Shown piece after piece: positions 50,152 through 64,000 of a stretch of 64,000 bases of DNA (position 1 is the stretch's first letter; every line of letters begins with the position of its first letter). The stretch covers positions 1-64,000 of the forward strand of contig NZ_SSOM01000081.1 of assembly GCF_029871235.1 (NCBI RefSeq), read 5' to 3'. This stretch comes from Pseudomonas sp. BN411 (lineage in GTDB: Bacteria; Pseudomonadota; Gammaproteobacteria; Pseudomonadales; Pseudomonadaceae). The translations under genes were made by a program, and so were the position numbers. The notes under the pieces were generated by a model, which did no database searches, was not told the origin of the DNA, and saw only the letters and a program-made list of their open reading frames with translations.

Positions 50152-51885
50152 ATGACCCGCCTCTTCCTCAAACTTGTAGAAACCAGCAACCCCGACCTGC
50201 TGCGCCGTGCCCTGGCCTGGCTCTACGGCTTCATCCGTCCACAACTGCGCGCCATTCTGGTGCTGCTCGGCCTGTCCCTCGGTGCCTCGTTGCTGGTGCT
50301 GGCCCAGCCCTGGTTGACCAAGACCCTGATCGACGACGGCCTGCTGGCAAAGGATTTCAGCAAGCTGGTGCAGGTGGCCGTCGCGATGATCGCCGTCGGC
50401 ATCCTCGGCACGATGCTGTCCGGCATCAACCGCTACCTGCACACGCGGCTTTCCGGGCGCATCCTCTTCGCCCTGCGGGACGACCTCTATCGCCATCTCC
50501 AGCAACTCTCGCCAGCCTTCTACGGCCGCAAGCGCATCGGCGACATTCTGTCCCGGCTCGATGGCGACGTGGCGGAGATCCAGCGTTTCGCCGTGGATTC
50601 GCTGTTCTCGGCGGTTTCCAGTGTCATTGGCCTGATCGGCGCGGTGGCGCTGATGCTGTTGCTGTCCTGGCAACTGTCGTTGCTGCTGGCGCTGTTGATT
50701 CCCATCGAAGTGCTCTGGCTGCGCTGGATGCGGCGCAAGGTAGAGCGCGAAGTACGCAGCCTGCGTGAGCGTTCGGCGGATGTGTCGTCCTTCCTGGTAG
50801 AAACCCTGCCGGCGATGAAATTCATCCAGGCCGCCGGCCAGCAGAAGCGCGAGTCGCGCCGTCTGGAAGGGCTGGGGCAGGGCTACATGAGCCAATTGCT
50901 GCGGGTGCAGGTCACCGAATTCTTCACCCACGCCGTGCCCGGCACGCTTACCTCGCTGTCTCGCGCCTGCGCGTTCCTCATCGGCGGTTACTGGGTGATC
51001 CAGGGCACCTGGCAACTGGGCGCGCTGATCGCCTTTTCCACTTATCTCGGCATGGCCGTGGGCCCGGTGCAGAGCCTGCTCGGCCTCTACGTGGCGCTGC
51101 AACGCATGACCGTCAGCCTTGGCCGGGTGATGGAGCTGCAACAGGAACCGGTGCCGGTACGCCAGCCCGAGTCGCCCAAACCCATGCCGGAGGGCAGGGG
51201 AGAGCTGCGCCTTGAGGGCGTGCACTTCGCCCATGAACAGCGCGCCGGCGCTGTGCTGAGCGGGGTGGATGCGGTGATCCCCGCTGGCCTCAAGGTGGCC
51301 ATCAGCGGCGCTTCGGGCGTCGGCAAATCGACCCTCATCGACCTGCTGCAACGCTTCTACGACCCGGATCAGGGCCGCGTGCTATTGGACGGCGCGGACC
51401 TGCGCGAGTTGGACCTCTTCGCCCTGCGCCGGCGCATCGCCGTGGTCAGCCAGGACATCGTTCTGTTCCGTGGCACCCTGGCCGAGAACCTTGCCTACAG
51501 TGCCCCAGAGGCCACGCGCGATGCCCTGGAGCAGGTGGCGCGGCTGGCCCGGCTGGACAGCCTGATCGAATCCTTGCCTATGGGCCTGGACAGCCCCCTG
51601 GGCGAGCGCGGCCAGCAGCTTTCCGGCGGCCAGAAACAACGCATCGCCATTGCCCGCGCCTTGCTGCAAGACCCGCTCATCCTCGTGCTGGACGAAGCCA
51701 CCTCGGCGGTGGACGAAGCCACCGAACGGGAAGTGATCGCCGCCATCGACCAACTCTTCTTTGGCCGTACCCGCATTCTCATCAGCCACCGTCCGTCCAC
51801 CCTGGCCCAGGCCGAGATCGCCTTCCGCCTGGAACAAGGCCAGTTGCACAGCCTGGAGCCGGAGCAGGTGAGCCATGGCCATTGA
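50152..51885 (+). CDS. ABC exporter (fused TM-ATPase), QhpF-like
   Basis: A 577-residue half-transporter that would work as a dimer. A six-helix membrane domain spans about 30-315. The ATPase has Walker A GASGVGKST near 384-392, signature LSGGQKQR near 489, Walker B LVLDEATSAVDE near 510 and H-loop ISHRPS. The gene overlaps the following protease gene by 11 bases, and that gene overlaps a flavoprotein gene. This ABC-protease-flavoprotein trio matches QhpF-QhpE-QhpG of quinohemoprotein amine dehydrogenase maturation, where QhpF is required to deliver the small gamma subunit to the periplasm. Assignment rests on context as well as family. Confidence 0.78.
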   Translation: MTRLFLKLVETSNPDLLRRALAWLYGFIRPQLRAILVLLGLSLGASLLVLAQPWLTKTLIDDGLLAKDFSKLVQVAVAMIAVGILGTMLSGINRYLHTRLSGRILFALRDDLYRHLQQLSPAFYGRKRIGDILSRLDGDVAEIQRFAVDSLFSAVSSVIGLIGAVALMLLLSWQLSLLLALLIPIEVLWLRWMRRKVEREVRSLRERSADVSSFLVETLPAMKFIQAAGQQKRESRRLEGLGQGYMSQLLRVQVTEFFTHAVPGTLTSLSRACAFLIGGYWVIQGTWQLGALIAFSTYLGMAVGPVQSLLGLYVALQRMTVSLGRVMELQQEPVPVRQPESPKPMPEGRGELRLEGVHFAHEQRAGAVLSGVDAVIPAGLKVAISGASGVGKSTLIDLLQRFYDPDQGRVLLDGADLRELDLFALRRRIAVVSQDIVLFRGTLAENLAYSAPEATRDALEQVARLARLDSLIESLPMGLDSPLGERGQQLSGGQKQRIAIARALLQDPLILVLDEATSAVDEATEREVIAAIDQLFFGRTRILISHRPSTLAQAEIAFRLEQGQLHSLEPEQVSHGH

Positions 51886-52549
51886 GCTTGCCATTGGCAT
51901 CATCGACAGCGGCTTTGCGCCTGGGCAGGGCGATCAGGTCGCACTGGCCAGGCGCTTCTGGCTGGACGGCGGGGAGTTGCAGGAGGGCGAATCCCAACCC
52001 GACTCCCTGGGTCATGGCAGCGTGGTACTGGACACCCTGACTCGCGAAAGTGGCCCGATTCGCCTCTGCGTTGCCCAGGTCTTCGGCGACCGCTGGCAGA
52101 CCAGCCCACTGCAGGTCGCCGCCGCGTTGCACTGGCTGATCGAGCAGGACGTTGCGCTGGTGAACATGAGTCTCGGCCTGCGCAACGACCGCCCGGTGCT
52201 GCGCGAGGCCTGCGTGCTGGCCCAGGCCTCCGGCATCCTGCTTTGCGCTTCCAGCCCGGCGCAGGGCGAGCCGGTGTATCCGGCCGCCTATCCGGGCGTG
52301 ATCCGTGTAACCGGCGACGCCCGCTGCGCACCGGGGCAATGGTCTTGGCTGAACAGTCCCCAGGCCGACTTCGGCGCCCATGTCTCCGCCGCCAATGGCG
52401 TGGCCGGCTCCAGCGTGGGCTGCGCGGCACTCTCCGGGATCATCGCGGGCTACCTGCGGTCCCAGCCTGGTGCAAGCCGCGAGGCGGTGCTCCAGTGGCT
52501 ACGGGACGGTGCAACCTTCATCGGCCCGGAGCGCCGTGGCCATGACTGA
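51875..52549 (+). CDS. Subtilisin-like serine protease, QhpE-like
   Basis: A 224-residue S8-type protease without signal peptide, so cytoplasmic. The catalytic Asp is D11 (GIIDSG), His is H47 (LGHGS) and Ser is S180 (AGSSVGCAALSG, in place of the usual GTSMA). The region that usually gives the oxyanion Asn reads CASSPAQGEP, with no clear Asn. The short length and lack of a propeptide fit QhpE, which removes the leader from the crosslinked QhpC peptide. It overlaps the genes on both sides (11 and 8 bases). Confidence 0.75.
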   Translation: MAIELAIGIIDSGFAPGQGDQVALARRFWLDGGELQEGESQPDSLGHGSVVLDTLTRESGPIRLCVAQVFGDRWQTSPLQVAAALHWLIEQDVALVNMSLGLRNDRPVLREACVLAQASGILLCASSPAQGEPVYPAAYPGVIRVTGDARCAPGQWSWLNSPQADFGAHVSAANGVAGSSVGCAALSGIIAGYLRSQPGASREAVLQWLRDGATFIGPERRGHD

Positions 52550-53831
52550 CATCGTCGTACTCGGCGCCGGACCGGCCGGCGCGGCGGTGGCCCTGGGGCT
52601 GAAGCGGCTGGGTTACTCCGTGCGTGTGGCCAGCGAATGGCGGCGCTTTGCGGCGGTGGAAGGCGTGTCCCAGCGCGTGCTGGACGGCCTGCGCCAGGCC
52701 GGCCTCCAACGTGCGCTGGCCTGTGCAGCCGCGCCGTCGCCTCGACGCGTGCTGTGGAATGGCGACGGCCAGTCCATCAACCAGGAATGCCTGCTGGACC
52801 GCCCACAATTCGATGCGGCCATCCGCGAAGACCTCCGCGAGGCGGGAATCGAAGCGCTGGAAGCCCGCGTGCTGAAAGTGGAAAGCACCGATGCCGGCCA
52901 CCTGATCCATCTCGACTCCAACGAACCGCTGCGCGCCGACTTCCTCGTCGAAGCCCGAGGCCGTTCAGCACCGCTGGCCGGCGGCCGCCTGCGCGGGCCG
53001 GAAACCCTCAGTTTGCTCAATCAGTGGCAGGAGGCGCCGGGCTATCGCGGTTCGGCGGTGGAAAGCCTGCCCGATGGCTGGGCCTGGATGGCGCGCCTCG
53101 CTGATGGCCGCTGCTATTGGCAGATCACCCAGGACGCCGGTGGCCTGCCGCCCAAGGACCAGCTGCCGGACTACTGCGCCAAGCGCCGCGCCGAATCCGC
53201 CTTGGTGCGCGAACTGTTCGGCGCCGCCGCATTGGAGCCCGCCAGCCTCCACGCCCGCAGCAGCACGGCGATCCTCTTCTATGAGGCCAGCGGCCCCAAC
53301 TGGTTGCGGGTAGGGGATGCGGCGATGGCGGTGGACCCGCTTTCCGGCAATGGCATCTTCCAGTCCCTGTCCTCTGCGCTGCAGGCTCCGGCCGTCATCA
53401 ACACGATGCTGCAACGCCCTGACCGAGCTGAGTTGGCCCGACAGTTCCACCAGAGCCGGGTAGAGCATCTCTTCCTGCGCTTCGCCCGCACTGGCCGAGA
53501 CTTCTACGCCCTGGAACAACGCTGGCCCGACCAACCCTTCTGGCGCGACCGGCGCAGCTGGCCGGATGCCGAGCCCATGCACGTCCCGGCGGATTTCAGC
53601 CAGGTGAGGGTAGAGCGGGCACCGGTGATTCACGGCGACCTGATTGAAGAGGTGGACGTTGTGATCACGGCCGACCAGCCCTTGGGTATCTGGCATCTGC
53701 AAGGCATCGAACTCGCGCCCCTCGTCGCCGCACTTAAGCGAGGGGAACTCAACCAGGCCCTGGCTGGATTGCCCGAGCCGCAGCGCCGCATGGTCCAGGG
53801 CTGGCTCCTGTCCCAGGGCTACCGCCCCTGA
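52542..53831 (+). CDS. FAD-dependent monooxygenase, QhpG-like
   Basis: A 429-residue flavoprotein of the tryptophan halogenase/p-hydroxybenzoate hydroxylase type. The dinucleotide site is VVLGAGPAGAAVALGL at residues 5-20 and the second FAD motif is GDAAMAVDPLSGNG at 258-271. The start ATG 52542 lies inside the end of the protease gene. QhpG hydroxylates the tryptophan that becomes cysteine tryptophylquinone. A plain tryptophan-halogenase-like role cannot be ruled out from one sequence, but the overlapping ABC and protease genes favour the Qhp role. Confidence 0.75.
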   Translation: MTDIVVLGAGPAGAAVALGLKRLGYSVRVASEWRRFAAVEGVSQRVLDGLRQAGLQRALACAAAPSPRRVLWNGDGQSINQECLLDRPQFDAAIREDLREAGIEALEARVLKVESTDAGHLIHLDSNEPLRADFLVEARGRSAPLAGGRLRGPETLSLLNQWQEAPGYRGSAVESLPDGWAWMARLADGRCYWQITQDAGGLPPKDQLPDYCAKRRAESALVRELFGAAALEPASLHARSSTAILFYEASGPNWLRVGDAAMAVDPLSGNGIFQSLSSALQAPAVINTMLQRPDRAELARQFHQSRVEHLFLRFARTGRDFYALEQRWPDQPFWRDRRSWPDAEPMHVPADFSQVRVERAPVIHGDLIEEVDVVITADQPLGIWHLQGIELAPLVAALKRGELNQALAGLPEPQRRMVQGWLLSQGYRP

Positions 53832-61347: not shown

Positions 61348-61498
61348 ACAAGCCTCGGAAGGTTCATGGTTTCGGAATGAGCGCGTGCCAGCAGCAGGTT
61401 GCTACCAGGCCGCGGGGATAGTTTCGTTCGCAGGGGCGAACCCGTTCTATCCACTTTCCGCACACATGACCGAGCCGTGTCATAGCGCTCCCTTTTTG

Positions 61499-61535
61499 CT
61501 GTGGGGGCGAATTCATTCGCTTGGGGCGACGCCGT
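61499..61535. repeat. Solo REP unit, family A (left half)
   Basis: GTGGGGGCGAATTCATTCGC followed by TTGGGGCGACGCCG; no right partner. The whole gap 61348-61708 (361 bases) otherwise holds AT-richer DNA with TTGTAAATT (61641-61649) and AAGTGTCAATTT (61662-61673), a possible promoter or operator area for the OmpA-like gene, and the upstream region of the polyamine operon. Confidence 0.75.
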
Positions 61536-61708
61536 TATGGTGCGGCTTTCTAACTGGGCAGACGATCGCGTCCCCATAACCTTGCAACCGCCAAGCGAAC
61601 GATCGGCGACAGCTTCGTAGTGGCCATATGACACATCTCGTTGTAAATTCCACGCGCTGGCAAGTGTCAATTTGCCATCGTCAATAAGTGGATCGGCAAG
61701 GAGCTATC

Positions 61709-63244
61709 ATGCAGGGATCGTTTCGCCTTACGGCGCTCAGTTGCGCCTTTCTAACGGCAGCAGGTTGCTCCAGCCAGCAAATGCAGGGCCTCAAAGACTC
61801 CGTCAACAGTGTTGGCAAGGACTACGGCATGGCTGTTCTTTGCACAGTCGGCGTCGTCGGTGGCGCAGCAGCGGGGTATGCACTCAATGGTAAGAACGGC
61901 GCCATAGCTGGTGGCGCGGTTGGCGGCGCACTCGGTTGCGCGCTTGGTTATGCCTGGCAGTCTCGACTCCAGGAGCTGGATCGCATCGCCAAGGAAGAAA
62001 ATCTGAAGATCACTACCGAGCAGTTGACTGTAGCTTCCAGCGCGGTTGTTACTGCCGTGCCGAAAGAAGCCGGTCTAGTTACCCAGATCGAAGACAGTGG
62101 CATGTTCGCCACTGGCTCTGACCAGCTTACGGAAAGCGGTCAGCGTGCAGTCGGCAAGCTGGCGCAAATGTACTCCAAGCCAGCGTCTACCGATCAGAAG
62201 GTCGCAGCCGAGCAGCGTCTGGAGCGTCGTCTGCTAGTGGTTGGCCACAGCGATGCTACCGGCAACGCTGAGTACAACCAGAAGCTGTCGGAGCGCCGCG
62301 CAAGAACCGTAGGCAAGGTACTGATGCAGGCCGGGATTCCTGCCACCGCGATCTTCTACCAGGGCGCAGGCTCTTCTCGCCCGATCGCCGACAACAGCGA
62401 TCCATTTGTACGTGGCCAGAACCGCCGTGTAGAAATCGTGGAGCTGGCAAACGAGCAGGCCTTGGTCATGCGAGCTCAGGCTGAAGAAGGCAATACCAAG
62501 TACCTGCACTACGGTACATCCACGACCGTCAAGCCACACGTGGCCGCCAGCCAGGCAGCTAAGGCATCTGCAACCACGAGTGCACCGGTAGCCACCGCGC
62601 AGCCTGCTCCTGTGACTACTGCTGCCAGCACCAGCGCTCCTGCTATGACGATTGCAAAGACCAAGCCCGCTGTCGATTTCGCTGGCAAGCCTGTTGACGC
62701 ATACAACTGGTCCATGGCCCAGAGCATCAAGCCCAAGAGCAGCGGCTTTGAGTTGATTGGCTCCGCTCACGCTAACGAAATGCCTATGGCCAGCTGCGAA
62801 GCCGATATGCCGCGGAATGCAGGCGAAGTCCTGAGCATGGCCGATGACAAACCTCTGCAGCGCCACGCTACCAAGGATTACCTGCCGGGCTACAACAACC
62901 GCGTTTGGGCCAACACCGTAAATGGGCACCTGGTCACGGTGTCGCCTGTTTCGATCCTGCGCGAGAACGCGCAAGTTGATCGCCAGCCAATTCTGCAGGT
63001 TGTGCAGAACTACGACCAAAACACCAAGAACAAGGCTCAGACGATCAAGGCGGTGGCTAACACCTACGAAGGAGAGAGTCAGGTGCTGTACCGGGTGTTC
63101 GCCACGGGTGACAAGGCATCCGTGTCCTGCATGGATCTCGTGTTCAGCAAGGGCAACGCGCAAGTTACCGAAGGTGCCCTGTTCTATGCCGCCGGATCGG
63201 AAGCCTACGTGGCGTCCTACATGCCAATTCCCGCCACCAAATAA
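61709..63244 (+). CDS. OmpA-family lipoprotein with unknown C-terminal domain
   Basis: A 511-residue protein. The signal peptide ends in a lipobox-like LTAAGC (Cys20, followed by Ser-Ser, suggesting outer-membrane sorting). A glycine zipper lies at about 50-80 (GGAVGGALGCALGYAW). The OmpA-like peptidoglycan-binding domain spans about 130-245, with the family motifs VGHSDATGNAEYNQKLSERR and GQNRRVEIVEL. An Ala/Thr/Pro linker follows (about 285-325), then a 180-residue domain I do not recognise, with two Cys and a YNNRVWANTVNGHLVTVSPV stretch. AAGGAG before ATG 61709 fixes the start. Codon use is less GC-rich than in neighbours. It is followed 21 bases later by a membrane protein gene. Confidence 0.8.
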   Translation: MQGSFRLTALSCAFLTAAGCSSQQMQGLKDSVNSVGKDYGMAVLCTVGVVGGAAAGYALNGKNGAIAGGAVGGALGCALGYAWQSRLQELDRIAKEENLKITTEQLTVASSAVVTAVPKEAGLVTQIEDSGMFATGSDQLTESGQRAVGKLAQMYSKPASTDQKVAAEQRLERRLLVVGHSDATGNAEYNQKLSERRARTVGKVLMQAGIPATAIFYQGAGSSRPIADNSDPFVRGQNRRVEIVELANEQALVMRAQAEEGNTKYLHYGTSTTVKPHVAASQAAKASATTSAPVATAQPAPVTTAASTSAPAMTIAKTKPAVDFAGKPVDAYNWSMAQSIKPKSSGFELIGSAHANEMPMASCEADMPRNAGEVLSMADDKPLQRHATKDYLPGYNNRVWANTVNGHLVTVSPVSILRENAQVDRQPILQVVQNYDQNTKNKAQTIKAVANTYEGESQVLYRVFATGDKASVSCMDLVFSKGNAQVTEGALFYAAGSEAYVASYMPIPATK

Positions 63245-63265
63245 AACAAGTCATGGAAGTCCTAA

Positions 63266-64000
63266 ATGGAAGACTTATCTTTTGCTGCACTCAAGTCGTT
63301 GATCCTCGCACACCAGATGCTGACCTCCGGCGTCATCTTGCTGCTCGCAAGCGCCGTGGTCGTATGGAAGTACTGGGAACAGGTTTCCTACTTCCTGATC
63401 CGCGTCTGGCATAGCTTCCCCCTGATCGGCACTGTTGCTCGCCTGTCGCGCAAACCGTCCTCGGTCGATAGCGATGGCTGGATCAATCACGAAGTTACTC
63501 TGGCCAACGTGTACAACCGCGAATTCAAGAAGTACATGAAGGGGCCGGAGGCCTATAACGCCTCCCTCGACTACCTGGCCAAGGCCGGAGAAGCTGGCCG
63601 CTCTCCGCGTCCGGCATGGGTTCTGTTCCTGGTAGTTGGTCTGGTTCTGATCGAGGCGATGGGGTTTGCCTATGTGCTCGCAGGCTGGATGAACATGGAT
63701 GCCTCTACCAATGACCGTCACCTCCTGACGGCGGGTACCGCCATCCTGCTGGCAGTGGCGTCTGCGATCTTTGCTGAGGCCGCCGGCCATACCGTGCACC
63801 ACAACACCCTGATTGCCCGTGCACGTCACTGGTGGCAGGGGGAGGAGCCGAGCAAGCGTTCCCGTACCCTGAAGGCTAACAGGGCAATCAACCTGGAAGA
63901 CTCCTTCTCGGACAGCAACAGCGCTGACTATGAGCAGTTGCTGGCTCGCTTGAGTGACGTCAATTCCAGCGTTTCCCGCAAATTCCTCTGGCTGATCGTT
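63266..64000 (+). CDS. Polytopic membrane protein of unknown family (3' end outside window)
   Basis: An open frame of 245 codons starts MEDLSFAALKSLILAHQMLT at 63266 (GGAAG upstream) and runs past the window end without a stop. Predicted helices lie at about 17-37, 108-131 and 140-163, and a further one begins at the edge (FLWLIV). Between the first and second helix lies a charged cytosolic or periplasmic part (EFKKYMKGPEAYNASLDYLA). After the third helix come His-rich AGHTVHHNT and a charged, Ser-rich stretch. No family is recognised. Close spacing to the OmpA-like lipoprotein gene suggests a common envelope complex. Base composition is like that of the upstream gene. Confidence 0.75.
   Translation, partial: MEDLSFAALKSLILAHQMLTSGVILLLASAVVVWKYWEQVSYFLIRVWHSFPLIGTVARLSRKPSSVDSDGWINHEVTLANVYNREFKKYMKGPEAYNASLDYLAKAGEAGRSPRPAWVLFLVVGLVLIEAMGFAYVLAGWMNMDASTNDRHLLTAGTAILLAVASAIFAEAAGHTVHHNTLIARARHWWQGEEPSKRSRTLKANRAINLEDSFSDSNSADYEQLLARLSDVNSSVSRKFLWLIV

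What the first reader, a model, noticed from the sequence alone, without database searches (positions are those of the whole stretch)
61709..64000. Unassigned OmpA-lipoprotein/membrane-protein pair at right edge
An OmpA-family lipoprotein with a glycine zipper and a 180-residue unknown C-terminal domain is followed after 21 bases by a polytopic membrane protein of no known family. Both have lower GC than their neighbours. The pair would tie inner membrane, peptidoglycan and outer membrane together, the layout of envelope-spanning machines and of some anti-phage systems (Zorya-like designs also use OmpA-type anchors). The rest of the operon is outside the window.
Basis: partly seen in the sequence, partly recalled or inferred. 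Interest (0 to 1): 0.6.

Follow-up and report, generated by a model that had tools for sequence, protein, structure and literature searches.

The report
Uncharacterised three-gene cell-envelope module
A pair of genes at the edge of the sequence is two thirds of a sporadically inherited, unnamed three-gene set that probably links a bacterium's outer membrane, cell wall and inner membrane, and some of whose distant relatives sit beside motor-like genes resembling a known virus-defence machine.

Summary
B and C match no Pfam, NCBIfam, PHROGs or PADLOC family convincingly. In the 56 loci that hold all three genes the order is A-B-C on one strand. In 398 phylum genomes strong B and C hits fall in the same nine genomes, A's private domain in eight of them. 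The module is patchy (3 of 18 genomes of the genus, own included) and sits at a variable spot. Distant alphaproteobacterial relatives of C follow a membrane protein perhaps related to B; in six of ten such loci read, ZorB-like and weakly ZorA-like genes come next. Best reading: an accessory trans-envelope linker or sensor with a motor-bearing cousin. No ATPase, helicase or nuclease belongs to it; phage defence is untested. It is not Zorya or Tol-Pal. Eighteen loci lack A.

The parts
61709..63244 (+). gene A: OmpA-type outer-membrane lipoprotein, 511 aa (lipobox C20; glycine zipper about 47-84; OmpA domain 132-239; linker; private C-terminal domain 322-511)
62672..63241 (+). private C-terminal domain of A, starting at the (V/I)DFGG motif, with a conserved A-x-A (A353, A355) and two invariant cysteines (C363, C474)
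   Evidence: (8 of 398 genomes, each also with B and C)
63266..64000 (+). gene B (first 245 codons in the window; the gene ends at contig position 64870): five hydrophobic segments, 534 aa, N-out/C-in by charge, long cytoplasmic tail. It is followed, outside the window at contig 64867-65700 (+), by gene C: 277 aa, signal-peptide-like start, predicted vWA fold, overlapping the end of B by 4 bases
   Evidence: B; C:

Best explanation
A, B and C form one accessory trans-envelope complex. A is lipidated in the outer membrane, grips peptidoglycan with its OmpA domain and presents its private C-terminal domain to the periplasm. C is a secreted vWA protein whose conserved metal-site-like face binds A's domain and/or B's periplasmic loop between helices 4 and 5. 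B is the inner-membrane hub, whose cytoplasmic loops and tail pass on the state of the periplasmic link. I propose that it works as a passive tension or damage sensor: disturbance of the cell wall or outer membrane changes the A-C-B link and is read out by B's cytoplasmic part. Some alphaproteobacterial cousins have a B'-C' pair followed by a stator-like pair (ZorA-like, ZorB-like) instead of A, so there the same core would be coupled to ion flow. Shown here: gene order, co-occurrence, domain content, C's predicted fold, the C/C' relationship, purifying selection and patchy distribution. Inferred: physical contacts, topology, direction of signalling and physiological role.
For: Order A-B-C on one strand in 56 of 56 loci that hold all three; A-B gaps of 8-30 bases in 53 of 56, and a 4-base B-C overlap as the commonest spacing. 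In 398 phylum genomes strong B (9), strong C (9) and A's private domain (8) fall in the same nine genomes. Pairwise distances correlate over 32 loci: AB 0.83, AC 0.96, BC 0.82 (shared ancestry alone also gives this). C's model has mean pLDDT 89 and matches vWA chains (4fx5, titled von Willebrand factor type A: VIA Z 12.8, 161 residues, 2.9 A). D51, D182, E185 and S187 are in 60 of 60 and T53 in 59 of 60, just after strands 1 and 4, where a vWA metal site lies (recalled). A's D182 and R197, placed like the peptidoglycan-binding Asp and Arg of OmpA (recalled), are in 38 of 38. Five hydrophobic segments in B with positive-inside charge. C versus C' hhalign 99%, E 5e-18. Six of ten loci read with distant C relatives have B'-C'-M'-O'.
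Against: B and C occur without A in 18 loci with at least 2.9 kb of upstream sequence, 14 of them Sulfurovum, and A's private domain was not found in six such genomes (which warns that an empty answer without a positive control shows nothing). So A is not always needed. B's helical model has no convincing fold match. B versus B' is only 73% over 70 columns, and 11% against the single L107 protein. Four of ten distant loci have no recognised motor genes (L107, L115, L116, L117). M' as ZorA-like rests on weak hits, 4 of 6 M' scanned with PADLOC: 1.5e-6 at best, much of it coiled coil; Pfam MotA_ExbB 0.011, below cut-off, in one M' and absent in the four others scanned; a profile of the membrane part found no MotA/ExbB chain in the PDB. 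O' of L118 has no ZorB or OmpA hit. The third serine of a classical vWA metal motif is missing (position 55 variable). No complex was modelled and no phenotype is known.
Confidence: 0.45

Rival explanations
1. A static tether: the three proteins only hold outer membrane, wall and inner membrane together under stress, like an accessory Pal or Lpp system, with no signalling.
For: A is built like YiaD/Pal lipoproteins; no enzyme belongs to the module; passive envelope parts could explain the conserved features seen.
Against: B has invariant residues in loops and helices placed in or near the cytoplasm by charge (P52, G55, W72, R112, E130, R228, each 46 of 46), more than a tether seems to need. 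B is longer where A is present: 56 of 57 B proteins with A in view have 492 aa or more, 21 of 22 without A in view have 444-475 (confounded by ancestry). The module is patchy.
Confidence: 0.25
2. An anti-phage system working like a simplified Zorya: wall damage during phage DNA entry is sensed through A and C, and B acts in the membrane as effector (for example by depolarisation).
For: Patchy and perhaps transferred: 3 of 18 genomes of the genus, own included, Aeromonas rows nested among Pseudomonas rows in the C tree (the tool notes that this is no proof of transfer), variable chromosomal spot, several plasmid records. Some distant cousins sit with ZorB-like genes, and Zorya needs peptidoglycan binding by ZorB (PMC11890865, passages).
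Against: No effector gene. Flanking genes look ordinary: of 66 scanned (of 182 listed), PADLOC hits at 1e-10 fall in 10 families, each matched by one member only. No PADLOC model fits B or C convincingly. In many Sulfurovum loci B-C lie near uracil-DNA-glycosylase-like (label recalled) and S41-peptidase genes, a conserved chromosomal setting that looks like a housekeeping role. No phage or viral contig hit.
Confidence: 0.15
3. An assembly or surface-display device: C is a vWA adhesin or chaperone handed by B to A for retention at the outer membrane, with A's conserved A-x-A site as a processing site.
For: vWA domains are best known for adhesion and protein binding (PMC12204202, passages). A353 is in 38 of 38 and A355 in 37 of 38, in the linker before the private domain. 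A gene family containing an S41 peptidase follows B-C in 10 Campylobacterota loci (Pfam tested on one).
Against: B matches no transporter family convincingly; C is short with one domain; no pilin or autotransporter partner recurs. The S41 gene occurs where A is missing, as far as the upstream sequence shows (6 of the 10 loci).
Confidence: 0.1
4. Three unrelated genes that happen to be adjacent.
For: Each has a different domain make-up.
Against: 56 of 56 conserved order; the same genomes in 398; different flanks.
Confidence: 0.01

Closest known systems
Zorya ZorAB (anti-phage stator; PMC11890865, passages read)
   Same: OmpA-type peptidoglycan-binding part plus inner-membrane partner; some distant cousins of the module carry ZorB-like and weakly ZorA-like genes
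   Different: A is an outer-membrane lipoprotein, not a membrane-helix MotB-like protein; B is not ZorA by PADLOC; no ZorC/D/E-type effector seen; an added vWA protein
Tol-Pal
   Same: A resembles Pal/YiaD lipoproteins: lipobox plus OmpA domain; suggested outer membrane to inner membrane link
   Different: no TolQ/R/A/B found in the module; A has a private C-terminal domain; B has five hydrophobic segments and C is a predicted vWA protein
vWA force transducers with TolQ-like motors (PMC12204202, passages read)
   Same: periplasmic vWA domains beside motor-type genes, function unknown
   Different: those described are helix-anchored vWA proteins, one class beside tolQ-like and tolR-like genes, the other beside tolQ-like genes only and with an aspartate-bearing pore helix; here C is a free secreted protein with a five-helix partner and an OmpA lipoprotein. 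Whether the two sets are one family was not tested
YiaD family glycine-zipper/OmpA lipoprotein (NF053611)
   Same: best NCBIfam match of A, residues 11-244 (E 5e-30)
   Different: 104.7 bits, below the family cut-off of 175; A is far longer, with a private domain tied to B and C

Membership tests
Zorya | ZorA-type MotA-like channel protein in the locus | tested here: not met
   PADLOC on A, B, C (E up to 1): no ZorA hit. In the distant cousins M' matches ZorA weakly (1.5e-6 at best, 4 of 6 M' scanned)
Zorya | ZorB: N-terminal membrane helix plus OmpA domain | tested here: not met
   A has the OmpA domain but a lipobox cysteine in 38 of 38; its ZorB matches cover the OmpA part. In the cousins O' matches ZorB at 5.4e-25, 1.5e-27, 1.5e-5, 8.2e-6 and 0.0026 in five, and not in L118
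Zorya | ZorC/D or ZorE effector next to ZorAB | tested here: not met
   none seen in the extended locus by eye; no Zorya model matched at 1e-10 among the 66 flanking frames scanned, of which two are from this locus
Zorya | protection against phage | not testable with these tools
   needs an experiment
OmpA domain family (PF00691) | score above the Pfam gathering cut-off | tested here: met
   A: 64.4 bits, cut-off 27.2, residues 132-239
YiaD lipoproteins (NF053611) | score above the NCBIfam cut-off | tested here: not met
   104.7 bits against 175
vWA fold | alpha/beta vWA fold | tested here: met
   predicted model only: Foldseek best E 3.6e-5, TM-scores 0.50 or less in the 50 rows shown; VIA Z 12.8 to 4fx5 over 161 residues, best row Z 13.4; no sequence match in Pfam or PDB
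vWA fold | complete metal site DxSxS...T...D | tested here: inconclusive
   D51, D182 (60 of 60) and T53 (59 of 60) conserved, position 55 variable; the middle Thr was not assigned; motif recalled
Tol-Pal | TolQ, TolR, TolA, TolB beside Pal | tested here: not met
   Pfam on B and C found none; none seen in the translated flanks by eye
MotA/TolQ/ExbB family | B matches the family profile | tested here: not met
   no Pfam hit to PF01618 for B at E up to 1; B versus M' hhalign 0.2%
alphaproteobacterial B'-C'-M'-O' operons | C homologous to C' | tested here: met
   hhalign 99%, E 5e-18 over 202 columns; against the single L107 protein 98.6%, E 5e-16
alphaproteobacterial B'-C'-M'-O' operons | B homologous to B' | tested here: inconclusive
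   hhalign 73%, E 3e-5 over 70 columns; 11% against the single L107 protein; same place just before the vWA gene

The most novel reading that the evidence does not exclude
The B-C pair (multi-helix hub plus periplasmic vWA protein) is the core of an undescribed class of envelope machine that exists in a motorless form tied to the outer membrane by an OmpA lipoprotein (this locus), a form driven by a Zorya-like ion motor (Rhizobium, Sinorhizobium, Paracoccus, Microvirga plasmids) and a bare two-gene form (Sulfurovum), and that senses or acts on cell-wall disturbance, perhaps against phages.
Probability: 0.3. Interest if true: 0.8.

Novelty: new variant of a known kind. Interest (0 to 1): 0.55.

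Why it matters
It gives a testable part list for an envelope module whose B and C have no family name in the four profile libraries searched, found in bacteria from Pseudomonas and plant-associated Enterobacterales to Campylobacterota. If the motor-bearing cousins use the same core, comparing the two forms would test what a vWA protein adds to Zorya-like or Tol-like machines, a question PMC12204202 raises for other vWA families of unknown function.

Tried and rejected
Rejected: known secretion, conjugation or Zorya locus; phage origin (C not found in 50,697 phage records at E 1e-3, nor in viral contigs); presence in E. coli (no match of the Enterobacter ludwigii module in 20,395 records by blastn). 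Two weak N-terminal B hits in the phylum sample (G019, G134) lie in proteins that look like type II secretion/pilus F proteins by context (label recalled) and were not counted as B. The weak C hit in G092 led to the distant relatives.

Led nowhere: PDB sequence searches with C, with the profiles of B, C and A's C-terminal domain, and with two profiles of M' gave only chance or coiled-coil matches; O' matched MotB-type chains through its OmpA part. B's model gave no convincing fold match (a missing match is no evidence of a new fold). Promoter scan: none found; terminators as in shuffles. No tRNA in the 19 kb around the module; repeats unremarkable.

Paper searches: seven completed. Nothing in their listings was recognisable to me as a description of the A-B-C module or the B'-C'-M'-O' operon. 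Passages only were read in PMC12204202, PMC7159879, PMC11890865 and PMC12505986. Most subscription papers and bioRxiv preprints are not held, so a description there is possible.

Dropped rows: a k-mer filter removed near-copies (A 55 to 38, B 78 to 47, C 84 to 63). I then gave 60 of 63 C, 46 of 47 B and, for A's C-terminal domain, 29 of 38. The structure jobs used 52 C and 42 B rows. The 56 loci come from the 98 loci held, with the duplicate window copy L001 left out; loci read later (L108, L124) are not counted. The 66 flanking frames are hand-picked from 182 mechanical reading frames at 47 loci, near-copies skipped, from 35 loci, so recurrence among close relatives is understated. Of 24 plasmid records hit with C' I read five.

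Full report
What is there. The window is the first 64,000 bases of a 101,775-base contig. The extended contig shows B ending at 64870 and a third gene, C, at 64867-65700, overlapping B by four bases. Beyond C lie genes on the other strand that read as a glycine-betaine-type binding protein, a permease and an amidase-like protein (by eye). GC is 58.6-59.0% in the module against 63.3% on the left, but the right flank is also 59.2%.

The three proteins. A has a lipobox cysteine, a glycine-zipper stretch below the Pfam cut-off, an OmpA domain (64.4 bits) and about 190 C-terminal residues without a Pfam match. In 38 aligned homologues C20, H180, D182, L193, S194, R197, A353, C363 and C474 are invariant. 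B has five hydrophobic segments; its charges suggest N-out, C-in, with some 60 residues between helices 4 and 5 in the periplasm. Its model has mean pLDDT 82 and no convincing fold match. In Aliarcobacter B ends in zinc ribbons, which fits a cytoplasmic tail. C has a signal-peptide-like start and, by prediction (mean pLDDT 89), a vWA fold: Foldseek best E 3.6e-5 with TM-scores of 0.50 or less, VIA Z 12.8 to 4fx5, titled von Willebrand factor type A, over 161 residues at 2.9 A. Conserved residues D51, T53, F83, S84, D182, E185 and S187 follow strands 1, 2 and 4, where vWA domains bind metal and ligand (recalled). Position 55 is variable, so the classical motif is incomplete. Pfam, NCBIfam, PHROGs and PADLOC give no convincing family for B or C.

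One module. A scan of one genome per species with the C profile gave 77 loci. Of the 98 loci held, 56 hold A, B and C (L001, a copy of the window, left out), and 56 of 56 have them in that order on one strand. Eighteen loci with at least 2.9 kb upstream have B and C but no A: 14 Sulfurovum, two other Campylobacterota, an alphaproteobacterium and a Vibrio. In this Campylobacterota group a uracil-DNA-glycosylase-like gene (label recalled) recurs near the pair in 18 loci and an S41-type gene directly after it in 10 (Pfam tested on one; in 4 of the 10 the upstream sequence is too short to see whether A is missing). B is shorter without A: 21 of 22 have 444-475 residues, against 492 or more in 56 of 57 with A in view (the 57 count the window twice, the short one is a split B in L039, and the long one without A, L046, has a mechanical start further upstream than its relatives). 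This is confounded by ancestry. In a sample of 398 phylum genomes C matched 10 (nine strongly), B 11 (the same nine strongly, plus two short hits in unlike proteins) and A's private domain 8, all within the nine. Against P. resinovorans (L010) dN is 0.04-0.11 and dS 0.66-0.92.

Mobility. Three of 18 genomes of the genus, the window's own included, have C. In G003 the contig matches up to 61535 and again from 71829, with 8.8 kb of other sequence between. In G006, G007, G010 and G013 the left match ends at 61474-61520. In G015, which has no C, the block 66065-71409 is present. So the module lies in a stretch of about 4.5 kb at a variable spot. In the C tree the Aeromonas rows are nested among Pseudomonas rows, and Enterobacter ludwigii and Pantoea endophytica are almost the same; this suggests transfer, though the tool notes that such patterns are no proof. 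Records in the plasmid collection from Pantoea, Paraburkholderia, Caballeronia, Aliarcobacter and Acidiphilium hold B and C, and the four of these read (one per genus, Caballeronia not read) also have an OmpA-family gene before B. Flanking genes show no theme: in 66 neighbours (of 182 listed, near-copies skipped) no Pfam family recurs more than twice at 1e-8, and at 1e-10 PADLOC finds 10 families, each in one neighbour.

The motor-bearing cousins. A weak C hit in an alphaproteobacterium proved to lie right after a membrane protein. Searching its class gave 5 of 240 genomes, itself included, and plasmid records gave 24, of which I read five (Paracoccus yeei, P. aminovorans, Sinorhizobium fredii, Rhizobium johnstonii, Microvirga ossetica). 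In all ten loci read a B-like membrane protein (four hydrophobic segments in the four scanned) precedes the C relative, C'. In six of ten (L118 and the five plasmid loci) two further genes follow, M' and O'. In L107, L115 and L117 no motor gene was recognised; in L116 two other membrane proteins come later, without a family hit that says what they are. Pfam finds OmpA above cut-off in two of five O' proteins scanned (S. fredii, R. johnstonii), below it in the two Paracoccus ones and not at all in L118. PADLOC matches ZorB in five O' proteins, from 1.5e-27 (P. aminovorans) to 0.0026 (Microvirga), and not in L118. M' is weakly ZorA-like (four of six scanned; 1.5e-6 at best, much of it coiled coil), and a profile of its membrane part found no MotA/ExbB chain in the PDB. 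C and C' are homologous by profile comparison (99%, E 5e-18). B and B' may be, over helices 2-3 (73%; 11% against the single L107 protein), against 0.2% for B and M'. The fold of C' was not predicted.

Mechanism. I take A-B-C to be a trans-envelope link that senses disturbance of wall or outer membrane and passes it to B's cytoplasmic part. Peptidoglycan binding by A follows from conserved OmpA residues (inference). Contacts, signal direction and purpose are inference. A static tether, a Zorya-like defence and a surface-display device remain open.

Literature. PMC12204202 (passages) describes other vWA proteins beside TolQ-like motor genes and says their function is unknown. PMC11890865 (passages) reports that mutations in ZorB's peptidoglycan-binding domain abolish anti-phage activity. 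PMC12505986 (passages) treats MotAB relatives; the terms vwa and Willebrand do not occur in its main text. PMC7159879 (passages) treats other vWA conflict systems. In the listings of seven completed searches I recognised no description of this module.

Noticed in passing
contig 61535-71829 (window 61535-64000 and beyond): A variable chromosomal stretch: congener G003 holds 8.8 kb of other DNA here between matching flanks.
   Followed up: partly
window 62756-62779 (A, residues 350-357): A conserved A-x-A (A353 in 38 of 38, A355 in 37 of 38) before the private domain of A looks like a signal-peptidase-type or other processing site.
   Followed up: no
L047, L052, L054, L056, L061, L063, L065, L067, L068, L083: A gene family that includes an S41 peptidase with a lipoprotein-like start directly follows B-C; A is visibly missing in six of these loci, the other four have too little upstream sequence to tell (Pfam on L047's only).
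   Followed up: partly
window 51875-53831 and L004:14640-18169: A subtilisin-like and an FAD-oxidoreductase-like gene on the left and genes resembling methylamine dehydrogenase (mau) genes on the right: possibly two amine-dehydrogenase maturation clusters near the module (read by eye; labels recalled).
   Followed up: no
L007:9989-11596 (Aliarcobacter B): The tail of B carries zinc ribbons here, unlike the window's B; PADLOC also gives a weak match of residues 234-323 to a DRT-associated membrane protein (5e-4).
   Followed up: no
L039:7369-8939: B is split into two overlapping frames in Lonsdalea britannica, a possible frameshift or sequencing error.
   Followed up: no
L006 (NZ_AP026896.1): A 4.9-Mb Aeromonas caviae record labelled as a plasmid, probably a chromosome.
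   Followed up: no
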